A DNA stretch of 62,497 nt, from contig NZ_VIAQ01000013.1 in assembly GCF_006546655.1 (NCBI RefSeq), forward strand, positions 1 to 62,497. Direction: 5' to 3'. This stretch comes from Methanolobus vulcani (GTDB taxonomy: Archaea > Halobacteriota > Methanosarcinia > Methanosarcinales > Methanosarcinaceae). Position 1 is the stretch's first letter; every line of letters begins with the position of its first letter. This document shows positions 31,127 through 41,522 of the stretch, in pieces. The position numbers and the translations under genes were made by a program. The notes beneath the pieces were generated by a model, which did no database searches, was not told where the DNA came from, and saw nothing but the letters and a program-made list of their open reading frames with translations.

Positions 31127-31239
31127 ACTTTTATTATTGCTTTTACAAAATTTTAAGCTTTTCCATCTGTTCTTAATCGGCGCAAACTTTATTCATAATT
31201 CAAGATACTCTATAATAAGAGTAACACATAATCAATAGT

Positions 31240-31386
31240 CTACGCCTTCGTAACCTCCCAAAAAACAGCGCTGATTATGTATGCAAGGCTGACAATGCCT
31301 AAATTATCCCAATTATCGGTGTAATATAGGATAAGGACAATTATTGCATATGTTATAATTTCTGATAGTAATTTTTTTAAATTCAT
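31240..31386 (-). CDS. Small single-helix membrane protein (48 aa)
   Basis: A 48-codon frame (MNLKKLLSEIITYAIIVLIL onward) encodes a positively charged start, one membrane helix (about 8-22) and a second weak hydrophobic stretch (31-43). GGGTGTGG lies just before the ATG. It ends in TAG. No family recognised, but composition and position are those of a real small gene. Confidence 0.4.
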   Translation of the reverse strand: MNLKKLLSEIITYAIIVLILYYTDNWDNLGIVSLAYIISAVFWEVTKA

Positions 31387-31553
31387 GGCCACACCCGAAT
31401 TTAATTTAGGTGTTTTAGTAAGCTTTTAACTATTTAAAAATTGCTATTTTGTTATTCTATACAAAACACGCATCTAATATAAGGTGGCGTTTCTGTGATT
31501 AATTTCATCATTAGCAGTAGCTATAGCTGTGGATTCATTAGGATGTGGTGTTT

Positions 31554-31752: not shown

Positions 31753-31880
31753 TTTTTGCATATAGTAGAGAGGATAATCCCTATCATAAATTAATATATT
31801 CAGTTTTGTTATAATAGGTTCAAGAAAACTTCAATTATTCCATTTTAAGAGGATAATAACAATTACCTTTCTCAAGACCT

Positions 31881-33536
31881 TCAGGACAGATGTAAGGATC
31901 CATTTATAACCACTCCATCAAGTCCCATTCGACCAGCTACATCAATGGCCTCTGAAGGATAGTGTACTATTGGCTTACCTTTTTGATTGAATGAAGTATT
32001 AATAAGAGCTGGTATGCCATCTTCCTCCCATAACTCTGACAAAAGACGATATATCCATTGATTATCCATGTCCTTTGACCTGACAATCTGTGCTCTTAGC
32101 AGATCATTTCCATGGATTATTCCCTCGAAATCTTTTTTGAAATCTTCAACAATCTCATAAGCTCCCAGCATGAAATGGGAAAGTTCACTTTTTAGGGCCA
32201 TATCCTCCAGGACTTCCTTTGCTGCGGTATCACAAAGTATAGGTGCCACGGGCCTGTACCATTCTCTTCCCTTAATCTGTTCACTCAAACGTTCTTTTAT
32301 TTCTCTGGAATTAGCCAATCCTATGAGACTCCGATGACCAAGTGCTCGAGGACCCGCCTCAGCTGACCCATTGCATACTCCAAGCACTTTTCCATCAAAT
32401 ATCATTTTCTTAATATCATCATTGTCATCTTGATGTTCTCTTCTTTGTTCGATACCGAAGCGATTAAGAAAAGGACTGTTTATTTCCAGTTTCCCATGGT
32501 CTAGATATTCCATCCAGGCAGCAGCTCCCAGTGCCAGTCCGGAATCACTTGTTACAGGTGGTATAATAATCCGCTTGAAACGACCAGATGTCTCCAGACA
32601 ACGATTAGTGGGTATGTTCAAAGCCGCACCACCGCTGTAGTACAGGTTTTCTGCCCCTGTTGTTTCCTGAAATCTTAAAATGACTTCAACAATCTTCTCT
32701 TGAAAATCCTTTTGTAGAGAAGCACATAGATTCATAAAAAATGGAGATTTGTTATTATAGGCTGTAAAATTGGTGTTCCACCTTATATTCAACAAATCTA
32801 GCATACTGGTTTCATTCCCCTGATAATCCAAGAACCAATTATTGGTCTTCAACCACTCTGATATCTCCGGGTATGTCTTTCCCAGCCCGCAATATCCCAT
32901 CAGTTTTCCAGGGAGAGAAAGATGCTGCCATTCCTCCTGATGAAGAATAGCCATAGCCAGTGGATTAACATTGAAATTATTAACCTGATTTTTCAATAGA
33001 TTCCAGGAGGCATCCAGTAGTTTCGGGCAGTTACCATCCCAATACCAGAAAGAACATGCTGATCGTGATGCACCTCCATCAATGTGTACTAAAAGACTAT
33101 TTGGCAAAAATTCACCTGCAAATGGAAGTATTGATGCAATGTGAGCAAACTCATGGCAGATAATTTTGGCATTTGTCTCTTTTTGTTTTCCAGCTGTATC
33201 ATACCATTTCACTTCAGCTGGAAAGAGAATACTTTCAACATCCATCTGTGAATCAGGCTCAATTCTTAGCCTTCCGTCAAGAGATATGAAAGAACTTCCT
33301 GAAAATGAATTGGTATTAACAAAACGTATTTCTTCATCGCAAGGCAGATATTTGTCAAGTAGTTCGTGTATATAGACTGGAAGTCTGTTGTCATGTTTGA
33401 GATGTGTATATCTTTCCAGCTGAATGGTCGTCAGGACTTTTCCATCTTTCATCAGAGCAATCCCATGATCATGAGTATACATTGGATGAGGTCCAGTGCC
33501 AACGTCCTGAATTCCAAAAATGCCCACTGTTATCAT
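31881..33536 (-). CDS. NodU/CmcH-type O-carbamoyltransferase
   Basis: The 551-residue protein has the two-domain layout of NodU/TobZ: an N-terminal ASKHA-like domain (DHGIALMKDGKVLTTIQLERYTH, HEFAHIASILPFAG, LLVHIDGGASRSACSFWYWD, YSGGAALNIPTNR) and a C-terminal YrdC-like domain with GSAEAGPRALGHRSLIG, REWYRPVAPI and PALINTSFNQKGKPIVHYPSEA. Members transfer carbamoyl from carbamoyl phosphate, through carbamoyl-AMP, to a hydroxyl of a sugar or antibiotic. It is the last gene of the viperin operon and overlaps the phosphatase gene by four bases, implying that the operon product is carbamoylated. Confidence 0.92.
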   Translation of the reverse strand: MITVGIFGIQDVGTGPHPMYTHDHGIALMKDGKVLTTIQLERYTHLKHDNRLPVYIHELLDKYLPCDEEIRFVNTNSFSGSSFISLDGRLRIEPDSQMDVESILFPAEVKWYDTAGKQKETNAKIICHEFAHIASILPFAGEFLPNSLLVHIDGGASRSACSFWYWDGNCPKLLDASWNLLKNQVNNFNVNPLAMAILHQEEWQHLSLPGKLMGYCGLGKTYPEISEWLKTNNWFLDYQGNETSMLDLLNIRWNTNFTAYNNKSPFFMNLCASLQKDFQEKIVEVILRFQETTGAENLYYSGGAALNIPTNRCLETSGRFKRIIIPPVTSDSGLALGAAAWMEYLDHGKLEINSPFLNRFGIEQRREHQDDNDDIKKMIFDGKVLGVCNGSAEAGPRALGHRSLIGLANSREIKERLSEQIKGREWYRPVAPILCDTAAKEVLEDMALKSELSHFMLGAYEIVEDFKKDFEGIIHGNDLLRAQIVRSKDMDNQWIYRLLSELWEEDGIPALINTSFNQKGKPIVHYPSEAIDVAGRMGLDGVVINGSLHLS

Positions 33537-34183
33537 ACAACCACCTTATACATCTGCCCGTCCCACCAGAGAGCATATGCATTCTCCTGCTTAACTAATA
33601 CCACTCCGTCAAGTGGTTTGATCCATTTCCCATTGAACTGCTCACCACAGTAATGTGCAATAAAAGGCATGAGAATTGAATCGTGGGATATGCAGATACC
33701 GTCTCCTGTACCTTCTTCAAGGAATTTTATGAGACCTTTTAAAAGAATCACACTTCCTTCCCCGGAAGACCTAATTCCAGGAAAAGACTGACCTTTGATC
33801 ATTTCCCTCACTACTGCTTCTGGCCCATAATCGAAGAAAGCATTAATTGCCTGATCACCGTCAAAAACAAAAGGTCCGGGTTCCCCTAGCAATTTCGAAA
33901 TTGAATGAAGTATTCTCTTTCCATATCCATCACCTATCGAATCGTTTGTCTGTGTACATCTGAGAAGTGGACTGGTCTTACACCATTCTATAGGTAATGA
34001 TGTTAGGACTCTTCCTAATTCGAAAGCTTTCTCTTTTCCTTCCAAAGTAATATGAACATCACTTCCTAATGTTCCCGGAAGTATGTTTTCCCTGTCAGAG
34101 TGCCTTATCAAAATCAACTTTTTTTGATTCATGTCTTGCACTTTGTCCAATGATTTCAGGAAAGATTCAGGTAGATTTTCCAT
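33533..34183 (-). CDS. Histidine phosphatase superfamily protein
   Basis: Phosphoglycerate-mutase-like fold with the nucleophile motif LILIRHSDRE (RHxxR-type, His28) and a second His in ISHDSILMPF. The 216-residue size is normal. It could dephosphorylate a sugar phosphate or nucleotide of the operon pathway. ATG at 34183 is chosen because GGAGG lies six bases upstream; the frame is open to 34228 inside the previous gene. Start and stop of its neighbours overlap, so translation is coupled. Confidence 0.88.
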   Translation of the reverse strand: MENLPESFLKSLDKVQDMNQKKLILIRHSDRENILPGTLGSDVHITLEGKEKAFELGRVLTSLPIEWCKTSPLLRCTQTNDSIGDGYGKRILHSISKLLGEPGPFVFDGDQAINAFFDYGPEAVVREMIKGQSFPGIRSSGEGSVILLKGLIKFLEEGTGDGICISHDSILMPFIAHYCGEQFNGKWIKPLDGVVLVKQENAYALWWDGQMYKVVV

Positions 34184-34184
34184 C

Positions 34185-34961
34185 TCAAATCCTCCTTTTG
34201 ATAAGATCTTCCAGAGAGTTATTTTCATCTGAGATATTTTGTTCCTGAATTTGAACCGATGCTATTTTATGGACAATTTCGCCTCTTTCATCAATAATAA
34301 GGAAAATACCATTCTTATCCATCACCCGAGCATGACCATTATAGAAAGGCTCTACCATATCATAACGTTCGGAATATACGGCCTCTCCTTTCATATTTAT
34401 ATGAGTCCAGCCATGCATATCCTTTGCTCGTGCGAATCCTTTATGAAAAACATCGAGATCAACAAATGAGTTCTCATGGACTTTTGTCCCATCTTTGAAT
34501 ATATGATGTGCCTGCCCAGTATGCTCAAAAACAACAGCTATTCCGTATCTATAATCGCCTGCATATATGAACCTCGACTGATATGCAGGTTCACCGGAAG
34601 GTAAAATGTGATAATAGGCTCCGTTCCTGTCTCTCACTGTGCAGACCCCATCCTGGAAGTTTCCTACCCATTCAAATCTATTATTATAGACAGGATTTCC
34701 TTCAAGGTTAATATGATACCATCCACTAACATCAGTCACAGCAGCAAGACTTTCATAAAAACCGTATGCTCGAAGAAATCTCTTGCCAAACAGATCGTTT
34801 CCTTTGATATCGATATAAAAACATCCAGTGTCATCTTGTACCGGTGCAATCCCTGGATCATGGAAACTCTGGACAGCGTTGAATCTCTTATTATACAATG
34901 GATTCCCATCTTTTAGATGGTGTGTGGCATCAAAGGAGATATGGGTTCTGTTATATCCCAT
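34185..34961 (-). CDS. WG/KWG-like repeat protein
   Basis: The 258 residues consist of about six repeats of some 40 residues, each with a pattern like YHINLEGNPVYNNRFEWVGNF followed by DGVCTVRD (others: WTHINMKGEAVYSERYDMV, CFYIDIKGNDLFGKRF). Such repeats form short beta-sheet solenoids or propellers that bind proteins or sugars; related repeats occur in other biosynthetic gene clusters. No signal peptide, so it is cytosolic. The start overlaps the stop of the SPASM radical SAM gene by one base. A scaffolding or substrate role in the operon is an inference. Confidence 0.75.
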   Translation of the reverse strand: MGYNRTHISFDATHHLKDGNPLYNKRFNAVQSFHDPGIAPVQDDTGCFYIDIKGNDLFGKRFLRAYGFYESLAAVTDVSGWYHINLEGNPVYNNRFEWVGNFQDGVCTVRDRNGAYYHILPSGEPAYQSRFIYAGDYRYGIAVVFEHTGQAHHIFKDGTKVHENSFVDLDVFHKGFARAKDMHGWTHINMKGEAVYSERYDMVEPFYNGHARVMDKNGIFLIIDERGEIVHKIASVQIQEQNISDENNSLEDLIKRRI

Positions 34962-35962
34962 TAATTTCCACTCCCTTCAACTGGCCTTCTCATATTACAA
35001 TTTCTGCAAACACCGTCCTTACCAGCATGCCTGATAAAAGACTGATACTTATCTGATTGCCAGAGTTCCATAAATGGTGTATCTTTCACATTACCGAAAT
35101 ATCCGAATCCTTTTCGAAGCTCATCCGGTGCACAGCACACATTAAAAGTCCCATCCCATGCAATCCATGCTTCTTTCCCCGCAAACGGACATTCATAGTG
35201 TTCAGGCAACAGGTTGTCGACGCTGTCTATAGGAATTTTAGACACGTTGGCCAGCTCAATTCTGTCTTTGCCGATAGCTACGAGTTCATCTACCGTCCTG
35301 TTCCACTCAATACGGTCATGTACATTTCCAGTCAGAGATTCTTCTTCCAGTTCTGGCCAGGTTATCCATAAATGATGTCCTTTGAACCTGTCAATCCGAT
35401 GATCGATAGCGAGCTGAAGAAGAGATTTCAAATCCCTTATATTCTTCTTCATGAAAGTTACTTGGAAGGTAATTGTCGGCCAATTGGTTCCTTTATCGCG
35501 CAGTTCATCGCGTATCCTTATCAATGTCCTTATGTTTTCAAGGGTTGTTTCATGGTCAATCCCCTTCATTATGCTTTCATTTATAGTATTAGATGAACCA
35601 TTTATCGATACCTTTATGTCACTGGCCAGAGGTAGTATCTGATTCCCCCATTGCTCATCTCCACGACCAGGAAATGTTCCATTGGTTGTCAGATTGATTT
35701 TAAGTCCATGTTCATTTGCCAATTCCAGTAATTTGTCAAAATGTCTGTACAGAAGAGGCTCTCCCATTGTGCTTGGGATTATCTCTTTAAGACCATGAGG
35801 GGCGGCGTTTGCAACAACTTCTGAGATAATGTCTGGTTTCATTACACGGTTGCTAGTCTTTTTTTCCTTCCTGTACTCACTGTGCTCCTCACACATGATA
35901 CAATGGATATTACAGGAATCAGGGTTCGTATCAAAAGTGATTCTCCAGGGTCCTTCTTCCAT
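34961..35962 (-). CDS. Radical SAM protein with SPASM-like C-terminus
   Basis: The CxxxCxxC cluster site is CNIHCIMC (Cys17, 21, 24), followed by the GEPLL motif in STMGEPLLYRHFDKLL and the beta4 segment KVSINGSS. The C-terminal region has extra Cys ligands for auxiliary iron-sulfur clusters (YECPFAGKEAWIAWDGTFNVCC, then GVCRNCNMRRP), as in SPASM/twitch enzymes that modify peptides, sugars or nucleosides. ATG at 35962 is supported by GGAGGTG and lies one base after the glycosyltransferase stop. The substrate is unknown; a peptide substrate gene was not found. Confidence 0.9.
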   Translation of the reverse strand: MEEGPWRITFDTNPDSCNIHCIMCEEHSEYRKEKKTSNRVMKPDIISEVVANAAPHGLKEIIPSTMGEPLLYRHFDKLLELANEHGLKINLTTNGTFPGRGDEQWGNQILPLASDIKVSINGSSNTINESIMKGIDHETTLENIRTLIRIRDELRDKGTNWPTITFQVTFMKKNIRDLKSLLQLAIDHRIDRFKGHHLWITWPELEEESLTGNVHDRIEWNRTVDELVAIGKDRIELANVSKIPIDSVDNLLPEHYECPFAGKEAWIAWDGTFNVCCAPDELRKGFGYFGNVKDTPFMELWQSDKYQSFIRHAGKDGVCRNCNMRRPVEGSGN

Positions 35963-35963
35963 T

Positions 35964-37163
35964 TCAAAGCACCTCCCTGTACAATTCCTGAACAAAAGCA
36001 GCATCATCCTGAATGGACCTTACCTTTGTACTGCTCACATTAAGGCCGTTCAGGATTGTTGGCTCATCTTCTATCCTTTTCATGATACTTTTTAACGCAT
36101 CTTTGTTACCTGTATCGAATGTAAAGCCGTCAATTCCATTTTCAACAAGTTCAGCCATTCCGCCGATATCAGACGTTATCACAGGGATGCTGGCCATGAA
36201 TGCTTCCTGAATCACCAGTGGTGAATTCTCGTACCAGATCGAAGGAACTACAAGAACATCAATTCTCTCAAGAACCTTATTAATTTCCCAGTTGTCAAAA
36301 GAACCATCGAAGAAGATATTTTTGTCTACATATTTTTCAAGGAATACCTTTTGTCCACCTACCGAACCAAATATATGAAGTTCGCTTCTTTCAAGTTCCC
36401 CGAAGGCTTCAAGCAGAATTTTGATACCTTTTACGGGTATTACTCTGCCCATGAATCCAAAAGATATCTTAGAGTCATTTTCATAGTTCTTCTTTTTAGG
36501 AAGAATGATGCTCTTGTTGAAACCATATTTTGAGAAGACAAGTTTTTTATCATCTACCCCGTTATTTTTGTAGAAATCCAAAAGGAAATGAGATGGTGAT
36601 AGCAGAAGGTCTATTTGTGATATTACATCGTCCATATGCTTCCGGTATACTTTTACATCTTCAATGTCCCATTTATCCTTGAACGTGCGCTTTACGCAGT
36701 CAAGACAGTTCTCATCAGAGGGACCTGGACATATCTGCAGATCAGGCTTAATCAATTGTCCACGATAGCATTTCAACCAGAAATCATGCAAAGTGTAAAT
36801 CACAGAACAACCTTTTTTCCTTGCAATCTCTGGTAGATTGGTGGAAAGATGAGATAGATGGCCAATATGCACAACATCTGGATCTATCTCTTCCAGAAAT
36901 GCTTCAAAAACTGCATCAATCTTTGGATCAAGGTATTTGTCGGTCAGAGTGTAATCTCTCTGGGGTTTATTGACCCTGCGAACTTTCAAACCATGGTAAT
37001 CTTCATCATAGTACGTATACGAATCTTCATACGGATTTTCTATCCTTGTAAAGACATATACCTCATTGTTCTTAGTAAGTTCCTGACAGAGATTATATGT
37101 ATATACTTCTGAGCCAGCCATGTAAAATGGTGGGAATCCGTGAATGACCATCAATATCCTCAA
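35964..37163 (-). CDS. GT4-family glycosyltransferase
   Basis: The 399-residue GT-B enzyme has the N-terminal acceptor motif HGFPPFYMAGSEVYTYNLCQ, SLG-like FGFMGRVIPVKGIKILLEA for nucleotide-sugar binding, and the EX7E region in SIWYENSPLVIQEAFMASIP with SDIGGMAELV. It has an inserted Cys-rich segment (CYRGQLIKPDLQICPGP, then ENCLDCVK) seen in some GT4 proteins. Retaining transfer of a sugar to a lipid, protein or small molecule is expected. Its start overlaps the epimerase stop (ATGA). Confidence 0.92.
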   Translation of the reverse strand: MRILMVIHGFPPFYMAGSEVYTYNLCQELTKNNEVYVFTRIENPYEDSYTYYDEDYHGLKVRRVNKPQRDYTLTDKYLDPKIDAVFEAFLEEIDPDVVHIGHLSHLSTNLPEIARKKGCSVIYTLHDFWLKCYRGQLIKPDLQICPGPSDENCLDCVKRTFKDKWDIEDVKVYRKHMDDVISQIDLLLSPSHFLLDFYKNNGVDDKKLVFSKYGFNKSIILPKKKNYENDSKISFGFMGRVIPVKGIKILLEAFGELERSELHIFGSVGGQKVFLEKYVDKNIFFDGSFDNWEINKVLERIDVLVVPSIWYENSPLVIQEAFMASIPVITSDIGGMAELVENGIDGFTFDTGNKDALKSIMKRIEDEPTILNGLNVSSTKVRSIQDDAAFVQELYREVL

Positions 37164-38110
37164 AGCAAGAACACCTCCCTGAAACGGTCAACGGTCATTG
37201 GAATACCGTTTTCCGGTTTGACCCTGGCCTTGAAGTTTATTTTGCTGATAGCTTTGGAAGGTTCACCAACGAACCTATCAACATCATAGTTTCGGCAGTC
37301 CTTTTTAACAAGCTGTACATCCTGTCCAAGATGATCAGATATTATCCTGGCCACTTCCTGCAAAGTAGTGCCTTTCCCTGTCAGCAGATGGAAGTCATCA
37401 TGCACGGGACAGCCATTTCCAAGATAATCAATTGCCCTGAAGATACCTTCCACTGTATCATCGATATGCGTAAAATCAATCAGCTGATTTCCACCATGGA
37501 TCTCCAATGGCTGACCTTTTAGAGCCCTCAAGATAAATCTGGGCAACACCCTGTCCAGTATATCTTTTTCGTTACCGTAGACATTGGAGAACCTGAGGAT
37601 CACCGAAGAATTGCCTGTACGAACTGACCATTCTCTGACCGCTTGTTCTCCTGCGAGTTTTGTTTCACCGTAAATATTAATGGGCATCTTTGGAGCATTT
37701 TCCTTAACAGGAGTAGATGCAGGTTCGCCATATACCTCCCTGCTGCTTCCAAATATAAACCATGGATTTTGCCCTGTTTCTTCGAGGCATTCAAGAAGAT
37801 TCTGCGTGCCATCCACATTCACTTCTTTGCATCTTTGTGGGTTCTTCTCTCCCCAAACAACTCTGGAAACTGCTGCAAGATGAATTACACCACTAAAACT
37901 GTACTTTTCAAAGAAGCATTTCAGACCAGTTTTATTTCTGGTATCAATATTGACGTTCTTCACTGAACCATTTAAATGACTGAGATTATCCAGATCATTT
38001 CTGTAATCCAGACAGTGAACATCTTTTCCTTCTCTGATTGCTCTTTCAATAACATTTGAGCCTATAAAACCGGCCCCACCGGTTACCAGTATTCTTTCTT
38101 CTTTTGTCAT
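37160..38110 (-). CDS. NAD-dependent epimerase/dehydratase (extended SDR)
   Basis: Rossmann motif GGAGFIGS (residues 11-18), the HLAAVSRVVWGE segment, Ser/Tyr/Lys catalytic set with SSREVYGE and YGETK (Tyr147, Lys151), and RFSNVYG. It acts on a nucleotide sugar, most likely the donor for the neighbouring glycosyltransferase. The upstream gap to the viperin gene is 48 bases, the largest in the operon, and carries a GAGGGG ribosome site. Confidence 0.93.
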   Translation of the reverse strand: MTKEERILVTGGAGFIGSNVIERAIREGKDVHCLDYRNDLDNLSHLNGSVKNVNIDTRNKTGLKCFFEKYSFSGVIHLAAVSRVVWGEKNPQRCKEVNVDGTQNLLECLEETGQNPWFIFGSSREVYGEPASTPVKENAPKMPINIYGETKLAGEQAVREWSVRTGNSSVILRFSNVYGNEKDILDRVLPRFILRALKGQPLEIHGGNQLIDFTHIDDTVEGIFRAIDYLGNGCPVHDDFHLLTGKGTTLQEVARIISDHLGQDVQLVKKDCRNYDVDRFVGEPSKAISKINFKARVKPENGIPMTVDRFREVFLL

Positions 38111-38158
38111 TGTTAAAACCCCTCTTTTTGAAGGGAAGAAGAATCCATATTATAACGG

Positions 38159-39187
38159 TTAGTTCCACTCATAGCTACGCTCCCTTTCCAGACACTTGTC
38201 TACATCGACCAGCTCAGTCAATTCCATACATTCCAGCTCTTCAAAAGCAACAGAAGAACGCTGATTATCATTGCTCAAAAGAATATTCCCATCTGCACCA
38301 ATTATTAGATAGGAGTTCAGCATATCATCAGCAGATTCAAAGGTTGGAGTTGCACCATTATTTAGCACCAATCCTCCGTTTATTCTTCTGAATGCTTCGA
38401 ACTCTTCGGTTGTGAGGATCAAATCCAACGCATCATCATTCTGGCCTTTCATATAAAGTATCTGGAACACCTTCCATCTGTCAGGACGCAGTGATGATAT
38501 GAACGTTTTCATATCCTCCAGATAATTCAATTTGGTAACTGTGGTATTGATCTTTAGCTTCATACCATATTTGCGAATAAGTTCACAAACTCTCTGAACG
38601 TGCTCAACATGGCAACCATTTCCTCTTCCAAGTTCCTTCTCTATATTTTCATCTGTAGAATCTACCGAGATACCTATCCAATCGACATAACTACTCAGTT
38701 CTCTGATATTATTCTCATTGAGCAAGGACGCATTTGTAACAACACTGACAGTAAATTCCATGTCTTTTGCCATTTTCAAAAGATACATCAGATTTTTGTA
38801 TAGTAACGGCTCACCACCAGCAAAGTTGATTTTTTCGATTCCTTTATTCTTTAAAGTTTCAAGTATATGCCTGGTCTTTTCGATGTCCTTGAACTCCCCG
38901 ATCATATTCTTGTAGAAACAGAATCTGCAGTTGTAATTGCAGTTCATAGTGACATGCCAGTTTGCAGACCTGATACTTGTAGCAGGTGTGAGTGTTTTTC
39001 CTGTAATCGTTGCATAAGGAATAGAAGAATGACGAATTATTCCATAATCATTCAAATGGACAATGTCCAGATCATTCCTACAGTCCTGTATGCAAAGATC
39101 TGTGTTTGCCTGTTTTGTTCCGTCGATATCGTTGAAGCCTATAAGTTCAGCTTCACCAGAAAAATGTACTATATTTTCCCTTTTCAT
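38159..39187 (-). CDS. Viperin-family radical SAM enzyme with N-terminal extension
   Basis: The core from residue ~78 to the end follows animal and prokaryotic viperins closely. Seen: the cluster motif CNYNCRFC (Cys83, 87, 90), KINFAGGEPLL, VSVVTNASLL, GISVDSTDE, GRGNGCHVEHVQRV, KINTTVTKLNYLEDM, the nucleotide-binding PDRWKVFQILYMKGQNDDAL, TEEFEAF, and NSYLIIGADGNIL, whose Tyr lines up with the active-site Tyr of viperin. Known viperins turn CTP, GTP or UTP into 3'-deoxy-3',4'-didehydro chain terminators that block viral transcription. The first ~75 residues (with DLCIQDCRND) are not part of the usual fold. Start at 39187 has GGAG eight bases upstream; the ATG at 39223 is less likely. First gene of a seven-gene operon; no nucleotide kinase beside it. 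Confidence 0.9.
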   Translation of the reverse strand: MKRENIVHFSGEAELIGFNDIDGTKQANTDLCIQDCRNDLDIVHLNDYGIIRHSSIPYATITGKTLTPATSIRSANWHVTMNCNYNCRFCFYKNMIGEFKDIEKTRHILETLKNKGIEKINFAGGEPLLYKNLMYLLKMAKDMEFTVSVVTNASLLNENNIRELSSYVDWIGISVDSTDENIEKELGRGNGCHVEHVQRVCELIRKYGMKLKINTTVTKLNYLEDMKTFISSLRPDRWKVFQILYMKGQNDDALDLILTTEEFEAFRRINGGLVLNNGATPTFESADDMLNSYLIIGADGNILLSNDNQRSSVAFEELECMELTELVDVDKCLERERSYEWN

Positions 39188-39270
39188 TGTTCTTATCTCC
39201 ATGTGAAAGGGAAAAAATGCCATAAACAGACAAATTAATTCCTAGTTTTTGTCCTGTTGCGTTGATAAAA

Positions 39271-39283
39271 CGTTTATATATAG
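39271..39283 (-). promoter_or_regulatory. TATA box of the viperin operon
   Basis: On the minus strand the sequence reads CTATATATAAACG, an archaeal TATA element. It is about 85 bases upstream of the ATG at 39187, giving an expected leader of roughly 60 bases. Confidence 0.6.
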
Positions 39284-39380
39284 TACAAACTAAGGAGAAA
39301 AACGCAAATTCAGAACAGCTATTGCAAAATTGTCTTTTAATCATGTTCCCTTCCAATTTGAGCTTGCACCTACATCCACC

Positions 39381-39438
39381 TTCAGATTATATCTGAAAGG
39401 ACGAACATTGACTTCGCACATGTGAACTAATTCACATG
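39381..39438. promoter_or_regulatory. Two perfect dyads upstream of the viperin operon
   Basis: TTCAGAT-TAT-ATCTGAA (39381-39397) and CATGTGAA-CTAA-TTCACATG (39419-39438) lie between the viperin promoter and the DUF234 ATPase gene. They could be operators or RNA hairpins at the end of the ATPase message. The small open frames across this region look like chance. Confidence 0.4.
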
Positions 39439-39558
39439 GGTGGCGTATTTGCAAACTTATCAATGACCTTTCAATATTTATAAGTTTATATGAGATTTTT
39501 TGGATTTTGCTGGATGAGCAATATTTAGCATATCGACTATAATTGTCAATTTCGCCAT

Positions 39559-40989
39559 TCACTCCACAGTAGAATCCGAAAGATAAACTTTCAATGTCAG
39601 CAGCAAGACACCTTCCTGTTTTGCTATCTCATGTAAGTTCTTAGTAAAACCAGATTTGCTGATGAGTGCAAAATGCTCTTTTCTTTCTGGGAGCCATTTC
39701 ACATGAGCTGCTTTCTCCTTCAGACTGAAATAGACATCTGCATTAATCTTCTGCTTTTGCCATTTGCACTCACAGAAAAGGATGTCCTTTGTTTCCGGGT
39801 CTAGGGTCACAAGATCGACCTCATAATCGTTTTTTCCTTTTGGCATATTAGGTATCTTTCCCCATTGTCTTCCAATAGACTTGAACTTGAATGGAAGTCT
39901 GTCATGCAGATTCAAGTCCATGAGCATTTCTTTGCTGACCTGTTCAAATGTCTCCCCAAGATAACAATCATAACTTTTTTTCAGGTCTTCAATAGCATGT
40001 GAACTGTCGCCTGCTTCGATGGAATCTTTATGTACCAGCACATACCTGAACCAGAAACGCAGGAAAGGGTCATCTATAACATAATTCGTCTTACGAGTAG
40101 ATGTTTTTTCTGCGACAGGATGTTCTTTTCTTAAGAATCCAAGTTTCATCAGGGTATCTACATAATAGGATAGATCCTTTGTTTCCATGAAAGCACCAGC
40201 AGCAATCTCTCCTGCTCTTGATGCACCCTTGGATATGGAATAAAGTATGTTCATATAAGTGGCAGGTTCTCTCAACTCTTCACGCAGCAGGAATTCACCT
40301 TCTGCATAGAGTACAGCTTCTTTGGAGAAAATAGACTGTTCAAGGTTCTCATAAAAGCCTTTATCAGGATCAAAGAACCTGAGATAAAAAGGTATGCCTC
40401 CTGTTGCTCCGTATATTTGCATCAATTCGTCCGGCTTATATCCCGGGAAAAAACCGGACATGTGACGGAAACTTAAAGGCATGACCTGTATCTGTCCTGT
40501 TCTCCTGCCATAAAGCGGACTTGAATAGGAAAGGGTTGTTTTTTCCATCATGGAAATGGAAGAACCGCAGAGAATCAGATGGAAAGATCCTCCTTTGAGT
40601 ATCTCATCAACAATGAGCTGGAATACAGATGGTATGGATTCATCAGCCTGTGCAAGGTAAGAGAACTCATCGATAACAATAACAAGTTTCTGGTCTTCTT
40701 TCCATTGTTTGCTTATGTATTCGAACACTCCGTCAAATGTTTCAGCAGCAGGTTCTATGTCATTAAACAGGCTTGAAGCTCTTTTTCTGAATCTAAGTGC
40801 ATTGGATAGTGTTCCTCGCATATCTGCCAGAAAGAAAATATGAGGCTTATCCTTCATGAACTGCTGGATCAGCTCTGTTTTCCCAACCCGCCTGCGTCCA
40901 TAGATGACGGTAAATGAAAAGTCTCCGGAGTTGTACTCTCTGTTAAGAGACTCTAACTCTTGAACACGATTAATAAAATTACTAAACAT
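39559..40989 (-). CDS. Archaeal AAA ATPase (ATPase_2) with DUF234 nuclease-like end
   Basis: The N-terminal STAND-like ATPase shows Walker A YGRRRVGKTELI, Walker B KLVIVIDEFSYL and sensor LILCGSSISMM. A winged helix follows (near 255-320), and the C-terminal DUF234 domain has a PD-(D/E)XK-like set: NDYEVDLVTL and ILFCECKWQK. Such ATPases are multi-copy in archaea and their targets are unknown. It is 372 bases from the viperin ATG on the same strand; a shared role is possible but not shown. Confidence 0.9.
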   Translation of the reverse strand: MFSNFINRVQELESLNREYNSGDFSFTVIYGRRRVGKTELIQQFMKDKPHIFFLADMRGTLSNALRFRKRASSLFNDIEPAAETFDGVFEYISKQWKEDQKLVIVIDEFSYLAQADESIPSVFQLIVDEILKGGSFHLILCGSSISMMEKTTLSYSSPLYGRRTGQIQVMPLSFRHMSGFFPGYKPDELMQIYGATGGIPFYLRFFDPDKGFYENLEQSIFSKEAVLYAEGEFLLREELREPATYMNILYSISKGASRAGEIAAGAFMETKDLSYYVDTLMKLGFLRKEHPVAEKTSTRKTNYVIDDPFLRFWFRYVLVHKDSIEAGDSSHAIEDLKKSYDCYLGETFEQVSKEMLMDLNLHDRLPFKFKSIGRQWGKIPNMPKGKNDYEVDLVTLDPETKDILFCECKWQKQKINADVYFSLKEKAAHVKWLPERKEHFALISKSGFTKNLHEIAKQEGVLLLTLKVYLSDSTVE

Positions 40990-41449
40990 AATAATTATGA
41001 TTTTGTTTCGTATTATTTATAGATTGTGGGATATAGCATTTTGATGGATTATATCAAAAATTATCATACGCTCTTCCTTCGAAAAGGCATTTCAATCCTC
41101 AAAATCCCTACTTTCATATATTTACTCCGCCAACATCGAATTCGATAATAGAATAATCTGGCATGATTTCAAGGAAAGTGAATCTTTGTCCAACGGGTCA
41201 ATATCTACAAAATTCATCATCTAGAGAGCAGTAACAACGTACAAATTAACGTAAAAATTCCAGCTTAACTCTGGGTTGAAACTTTATAAAAACCTCATTA
41301 CTAGCCCATCAAAAAGTATAACATTTTTATTCTATGATTCAGTACGCAACAGAAATAGATATTATCAAATAAGACTCATTATTTAAGGATTAAATTTCTC
41401 AAAAATGCAAAAAAGCGCTATAAAATTAGGACTATGCAATATATTTTGG
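40990..41449. other. Intergenic, no gene seen
   Basis: AT-rich. Short frames on the minus strand (for example MKVGILRIEMPF near 41115) look like degraded coding DNA but are too short to name. No hairpin or repeat of note. Confidence 0.4.
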
Positions 41450-41522
41450 TAGCCCGGCACGGATTCGAACCGAAGTTGCGGGATCCAGAGTCCTGCATGA
41501 TTGACCACTACACTACCGGGCT
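41450..41522 (-). tRNA. tRNA-Gln (CUG anticodon)
   Basis: Cloverleaf on the minus strand: acceptor AGCCCGG/CCGGGCT with discriminator A, D loop TAGTGGTCA, anticodon arm with loop CTCTGGA (CUG at 34-36), T loop TTCGAAT. CCA is not encoded. Two stem positions do not pair: A28-C42 in the anticodon stem and U50-U64 in the T stem, with U49-G65 a wobble. No intron. It may be a functional but divergent minor isoacceptor or the start of decay. Confidence 0.9.

What the first reader, a model, noticed from the sequence alone, without database searches (positions are those of the whole stretch)
38159..39187. Viperin homologue heads an archaeal seven-gene operon
The enzyme has the viperin cluster motif, the RWKVFQ nucleotide-binding block and the conserved Tyr, so a nucleotide-modifying reaction is likely. 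Unlike known antiviral viperin loci it is followed by epimerase, glycosyltransferase, SPASM radical SAM, repeat protein, phosphatase and carbamoyltransferase in overlapping reading frames. This suggests either a new defence system with extra enzymes or a pathway that builds a glycosylated, carbamoylated nucleoside-like compound. Sequence motifs are seen; the pathway is inferred.
Basis: partly seen in the sequence, partly recalled or inferred. Interest (0 to 1): 0.85.

Follow-up and report, generated by a model that had tools for sequence, protein, structure and literature searches.

The report
Real viperin spliced into unrelated operon
A methane-making archaeon carries a genuine antiviral enzyme gene (viperin) that has taken over the promoter and start codon of an unrelated, widespread six-gene cassette; the same cassette occurs in a sister species and in distant bacteria without the viperin, so the seven genes are unlikely to be one pathway.

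Summary
The viperin is real. It scores 245.7 bits on the NCBIfam viperin equivalog (cut-off 180) and 248 bits on PADLOC pVip, falls inside viperins in a tree, keeps every invariant catalytic residue, and the best 30 PDB matches of its predicted fold are all viperins. It heads seven same-strand genes.

The inferred pathway is not supported. None of the 16 other viperin-carrying genomes found among 186 in the order has the six downstream genes beside a viperin. Methanolobus profundi has the same promoter and six genes (92-96% identical) and no viperin. A myxobacterial MAG has the six genes in that order, again without viperin. The viperin sits between the cassette's promoter/RBS/ATG and its first gene, fused to a decayed copy of that gene's N-terminus, and lacks the kinase and CARF-type regulator of its relatives. 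The block is a 10-kb insertion at the 3' end of tRNA-Gln: an empty site in sister genomes, viperin-bearing in two others.

Best reading: an intact, orphan pVip (ddh-nucleotide synthase) captured by an unrelated cassette. The cassette's GT4/SPASM-rSAM/WG-repeat core spans Bacteria and Archaea and seems undescribed; it is the more interesting lead.

The parts
38159..39187 (-). Viperin (pVip) ORF with the biologically likely start (RBS GGAG 39197-39200, ATG 39185-39187), 342 aa
   Evidence: NF038283 245.7 bits > 180; PADLOC pVip 248 bits; tree; fold. RBS and ATG shared with the M. profundi epimerase
38159..38981 (-). Viperin catalytic core: the only stretch of the ORF homologous to other viperins
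   Evidence: blastn to five intact relatives starts at 38974-38981 and ends at the stop; core mostly pLDDT 76-97, residues 1-81 below 50
39046..39191 (-). Decayed in-frame copy of the 5' end of the cassette epimerase, forming the viperin's N-terminal extension
   Evidence: 62% DNA identity over 149 columns; protein score 63 vs maximum 50 in 2000 shuffles; DNA score 30 vs maximum 18 in 1000 codon shuffles
39136..39536 (-). Cassette promoter region, with TATA-box-like CTATATATAAAC at about 39272-39283
   Evidence: 84% identical to the region directly upstream of the epimerase in M. profundi (L070 6117-6504)
38112..38172 (-). Possible remnant of the nucleotide-kinase N-terminus (MSGTNRYNMDSSSLQKEGF); weak, since its first residues overlap the viperin stop
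   Evidence: Compared by eye with the kinase starts of relatives (MTGTKPVFSFSDSSQD...); short
37160..38110 (-). NAD-dependent sugar epimerase/dehydratase (SDR)
   Evidence: Pfam Epimerase 3.6e-50; 92% in M. profundi
35964..37163 (-). GT4 glycosyltransferase (cassette core)
   Evidence: Pfam Glycos_transf_1 8e-24; weak PF20706 GT4-conflict
34961..36007 (-). SPASM radical SAM enzyme (cassette core)
   Evidence: Pfam Radical_SAM + SPASM; model pLDDT 88, nearest folds SuiB, SkfB, DesII, with BlsE at TM 0.65-0.68
34185..34961 (-). WG-repeat protein (cassette core)
   Evidence: Pfam WG_beta_rep 2e-12; in 80/80 cassette loci
33533..34228 (-). Histidine phosphatase branch 1
   Evidence: Pfam His_Phos_1 3.4e-6
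31881..33536 (-). NodU/TobZ-type O-carbamoyltransferase
   Evidence: Pfam Carbam_trans_C 1.5e-44; PDB TobZ 3ver 8.7e-37
39559..40989 (-). DUF234 archaeal ATPase = PADLOC candidate defence PDC-S27, in the same island
   Evidence: PDC-S27 177.8 bits
31470..41445 (.). Genomic island (about 10 kb) inserted between a conserved 245-nt element (31225-31469) and the 3' end of tRNA-Gln
   Evidence: Same interval is about 73 nt in G120 (L317 18431-18504); tRNA side intact in G136, G135, G137, G125
41447..41522 (-). tRNA-Gln(CTG), island anchor
   Evidence: ARAGORN

Best explanation
The ORF is a bona fide prokaryotic viperin (pVip), inferred to convert a nucleoside triphosphate into its 3'-deoxy-3',4'-didehydro chain-terminating analogue. 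It has been captured at the head of an unrelated, mobile cassette (epimerase-GT4-SPASM rSAM-WG-repeat-histidine phosphatase-carbamoyltransferase) inside a tRNA-Gln genomic island. The capture put the viperin core between the cassette's own promoter, RBS and start codon and its first gene, and left a decayed copy of that gene's N-terminus fused to the viperin. It is now probably co-transcribed with the cassette from the cassette's promoter, without the kinase and CARF-type regulator of its relatives, and acts as a stand-alone antiviral enzyme. The cassette most likely makes a decorated glycan or glycoside and does not use the viperin product. Shown: homology, gene order, junctions, island, absence from relatives. 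Inferred: ddh-nucleotide chemistry, co-transcription, independence of function, and the cassette's product.
For: Viperin identity. Catalytic residues invariant; dN/dS about 0.07 against two relatives, synonymous sites saturated against the others. Cassette without viperin in M. profundi, same promoter and ATG; no viperin in that genome at E<=1e-20 or on the viperin HMM at E<=1e-40. Same gene order without viperin in a Myxococcota MAG (L138). No cassette genes beside other viperins of the order. N-terminal extension homologous to the epimerase N-terminus and predicted disordered. Relatives of this viperin stand with kinase, CARF-type regulator and TPR protein. Island with empty site; viperins at the same tRNA-Gln in G113 and G114.
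Against: No expression, activity or phage data. The epimerase relic (62% identical) is more diverged than the operon is between the two species (94% DNA identity), so the capture may predate their split, with M. profundi having lost the viperin; the linkage may then have lasted long enough to be useful. In one Dehalococcoidia genome (L126) a viperin sits within 2-4 kb of the same kind of cassette, next to its SDR, and in that order viperin and cassette co-occur more than expected (6 observed, 1 expected).
Confidence: 0.75

Rival explanations
1. The seven genes form one functional system: the viperin's ddh-nucleotide (or a nucleotide sugar derived from it) is processed by the epimerase, GT, SPASM rSAM and carbamoyltransferase, or the cassette is itself a defence system to which viperin adds a layer.
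For: Tight spacing and shared promoter; island also holds PDC-S27; second linkage in Dehalococcoidia L126 and viperin-SDR adjacency in L159; viperin/cassette co-occurrence 6 vs 1 expected, p 7e-5 unadjusted.
Confidence: 0.12
2. The viperin is a decaying fragment: it lost its native start, kinase and regulator and persists by chance as a fusion with a dead epimerase stub.
For: Native start region absent, N-terminal 81 residues predicted disordered; same genome holds a clearly truncated viperin piece at C16 beside tRNA-Glu; sister viperin in G114 has a premature stop.
Against: Full-length core with all invariant residues and low dN/dS over the pairs as a whole; open frame kept through the stub; conserved RBS and ATG.
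Confidence: 0.12
3. It is a different radical SAM enzyme (MoaA/SPASM type) that only resembles viperin.
For: Generic radical SAM hits exist.
Against: Viperin HMM 245.7 vs MoaA 70 bits; tree places it inside viperins with outgroup split 97/97; best non-viperin structure has TM 0.45 vs 0.87; no SPASM domain.
Confidence: 0.01

Closest known systems
Prokaryotic viperins (pVip; Bernheim et al. 2021 as cited in PMC11291487), archaeal branch
   Same: Radical SAM core, CX3CX2C, GGEP, KIN, RWKxFQ, C-terminal Arg; sits in a defence-like tRNA island
   Different: No adjacent nucleotide kinase, CARF-type regulator or TPR protein; N-terminus is a relic of an epimerase; uses another operon's promoter, RBS and start codon
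Archaeal viperin associated with a TPR protein (archaea-only type, PMC12988326)
   Same: The close relatives of this viperin (e.g. own genome C3, L038) carry viperin-kinase-viperin-TPR
   Different: The window copy has lost or never had those partners
GT4 - SPASM radical SAM - WG-repeat cassette (80 loci here; no description found)
   Same: Window genes 2-7 follow the order found in M. profundi and in Myxococcota L138
   Different: In the window a viperin stands as first gene

Membership tests
Prokaryotic viperin (pVip) | Curated viperin HMM above cut-off | tested here: met
   NF038283 245.7 bits, cut-off 180; PADLOC pVip 2.1e-74
Prokaryotic viperin (pVip) | Cluster motif and nucleotide-binding residues (CX3CX2C, GGEP, KIN, RWK, Tyr, C-terminal Arg) | tested here: met
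   All invariant columns of A2 and A3 kept
Prokaryotic viperin (pVip) | Groups with viperins and not with other radical SAM enzymes | tested here: met
   Outgroup split 97/97; clade of 7 with 100/100
Prokaryotic viperin (pVip) | Viperin fold without a SPASM domain | tested here: met
   Top 30 PDB hits all viperins; no SPASM hit
Prokaryotic viperin (pVip) | Makes ddhNTP and protects against viruses | not testable with these tools
   Needs purified enzyme and infection assays
Viperin with kinase / with TPR protein (subtypes) | Adjacent P-loop nucleotide kinase or TPR protein | tested here: not met
   Neither adjacent in the window; both present in relatives
New viperin-headed biosynthetic or defence operon | Gene order conserved in independent relatives | tested here: not met
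   0 of 20 other viperin neighbourhoods in the order have the cassette; cassette without viperin in M. profundi
GT4-SPASM rSAM-WG cassette | GT4, SPASM rSAM, WG-repeat genes in that order on one strand | tested here: met
   Window and 77 of 80 loci
GT4-SPASM rSAM-WG cassette | Viperin as a regular component | tested here: not met
   1 of 80 loci has a viperin within 10 kb

The most novel reading that the evidence does not exclude
Viperin and the GT4/SPASM-rSAM/WG cassette are functionally linked (shared defence-island module, or the ddh-nucleotide feeds a sugar-nucleotide pathway), with the fused epimerase stub marking a recruitment that also happened separately in Dehalococcoidia.
Probability: 0.08. 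Interest if true: 0.85.

Novelty: new member of a known kind. Interest (0 to 1): 0.38.

Why it matters
It shows how an antiviral enzyme can be re-wired by capture: the viperin keeps its catalytic core but takes another operon's promoter, ribosome-binding site and start codon, which warns against reading function from gene order in defence islands. The larger lead is the cassette: a GT4, a SPASM radical SAM enzyme and a WG-repeat protein in fixed order across Bacteria and Archaea, with swappable tailoring genes, for which I found no description.

Tried and rejected
Conserved viperin-cassette operon: rejected. N-terminal 80 residues as a functional domain: rejected; no homology except the epimerase stub, pLDDT below 50. 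Kinase remnant after the viperin stop: only weakly supported. Island attachment repeat: none found by an 18-30 nt tRNA 3'-end search or by shared 10-mers between the edges. Viperin in the phages collection: only weak radical SAM hits; in plasmids, real viperins, and the four regions opened show no cassette. Literature on the cassette: 0 papers for two term sets; the library lacks most subscription journals, and the primary pVip paper is not held.

Full report
What is there. Window 38159-39223(-) is an open frame of 354 aa. The protein passes the NCBIfam prokaryotic-viperin equivalog (NF038283, 245.7 bits, cut-off 180) and PADLOC pVip (2.1e-74). MoaA is far lower (70 bits) and there is no SPASM domain. 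In two alignments every invariant column is kept. The tree puts it in a 100/100 clade of seven viperins from its own genus and family, with other radical SAM enzymes split off at 97/97. An AlphaFold model built with 16 relatives has a confident core, and its best 30 PDB matches are all viperins (9dfu TM 0.87; the next kind, SuiB, 0.45). dN/dS against relatives is about 0.07 where synonymous sites are not saturated.

The neighbours. Downstream, on the same strand, are an SDR epimerase, a GT4 glycosyltransferase, a SPASM radical SAM enzyme, a WG-repeat protein, a histidine phosphatase and a TobZ/NodU-type carbamoyltransferase. These six overlap by 1-44 nt; viperin to epimerase is a 48-nt gap.

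The association is not conserved. Among 186 genomes of the order 17 (the window's own included) have a viperin at E<=1e-20; in 20 neighbourhoods of +-10 kb around viperins other than the window's, none has the cassette. Conversely Methanolobus profundi (G117 = NZ_FOUJ01000001) has the same promoter region and the six genes at 92-96% protein identity without viperin, and genome searches find no viperin in it. Genes 2-7 are complete and under purifying selection between the two genomes (dN/dS 0.12-0.23).

The cassette is old and wide. A scan of 84,980 species genomes with the SPASM enzyme gave 219 relatives, of which the best 80 were kept. All 80 have GT4 and WG-repeat homologues nearby, 77 in the order GT4-rSAM-WG on one strand; 48 have an epimerase homologue, 45 a histidine phosphatase, 5 the carbamoyltransferase. 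These counts are lower bounds, since many contigs end within 10 kb of the match. A Myxococcota MAG (L138) has epimerase-GT-rSAM-WG-[aldolase-like gene]-HisP-carbamoyltransferase. Elsewhere the WG protein is fused to an O-methyltransferase or a P-loop domain, or the cassette carries a nucleotidyltransferase-phosphatase protein. Two literature searches found nothing on it; the library is incomplete, so 'undescribed' is provisional. The enzymes suggest a decorated glycan or glycoside; this is inference.

How the viperin got there. Window 31862-38114 aligns to M. profundi at 94% and 39136-39536 at 84%, with the viperin between them. The viperin's homology to its relatives starts only at 38981. The stretch before it, 39191-39046, is an in-frame, decayed copy of the epimerase 5' end (62% DNA identity; protein score 63 vs at most 50 in 2000 shuffles), predicted disordered. 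The viperin therefore uses the cassette's promoter, RBS and ATG. Its close relatives stand beside a divergent CARF/HFX_2341-type gene, an overlapping P-loop nucleotide kinase, often a second viperin, and a TPR protein, the archaea-only viperin-TPR type noted in PMC12988326. None of these stays in the window; a kinase stub after the stop is possible but weak. Because the relic is more diverged than the two operons are from each other, the capture may predate their split, with loss in M. profundi; I cannot fix the polarity.

The island. The block lies between a conserved 245-nt element and the 3' end of tRNA-Gln. In G120 the same interval is about 73 nt, and the flanks are present in G136, G135, G137 and G125. 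Viperins sit at the same tRNA-Gln in G113 and G114. The M. profundi tRNA-Gln (L315) is about 48 kb from its cassette, so the cassette moves separately. The island also holds a DUF234 ATPase, PADLOC candidate PDC-S27.

What remains open. In Dehalococcoidia L126 a viperin (297.7 bits) stands beside the SDR next to the cassette, and in G193 a viperin abuts a related SDR far from the cassette. In that order 16 of 157 genomes have the SPASM enzyme, 10 a viperin, 6 both (one-sided Fisher p 7e-5, rising to 0.04 if only 50 large genomes were comparable). This is uncorrected for kinship and size. In the window's own order 2 of 5 cassette genomes have a viperin (p 0.07). I keep functional coupling at about 0.1.

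Verdict. A real pVip, new member of a known kind, captured by an unrelated cassette; the proposed pathway is not supported.

Noticed in passing
window 31881-38110; L079-L158: GT4 + SPASM radical SAM + WG-repeat cassette in fixed order in 77 of 80 loci across many phyla, with swappable tailoring genes (O-methyltransferase, kinase, nucleotidyltransferase, HisP, carbamoyltransferase); no description found.
   Followed up: partly
L071-L074 (ANME-2, Methanoperedens, G114): Divergent versions of the cassette are preceded by a B-box/rhodanese protein and a Zc3h12a-like NYN ribonuclease domain protein.
   Followed up: no
L042 (own genome C16:43813-44310): Truncated viperin, 88% identical to the C3 copy, in a stretch with tRNA-Glu, with a kinase start cut short: viperin pieces seem to scatter at tRNA islands.
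   Followed up: partly
L038 (own genome C3): Full archaeal viperin locus: CARF/HFX_2341-type gene, viperin, P-loop kinase, second viperin-like radical SAM, 1007-aa TPR protein.
   Followed up: partly
L207-L225 (IMG/VR contigs): Sixteen viral-contig loci checked encode viperins with the RWK motif (29-41% identical to the window's), so viperins are carried by viruses or by host DNA binned as viral.
   Followed up: no
L126:13354-15264 and L159: Dehalococcoidia viperins adjacent to an SDR of the cassette type, in two orientations.
   Followed up: partly
G114:C6:50953-51744 (L014, L041): Viperin with an in-frame TAA near its end, directly beside the tRNA-Gln that anchors the window island.
   Followed up: no
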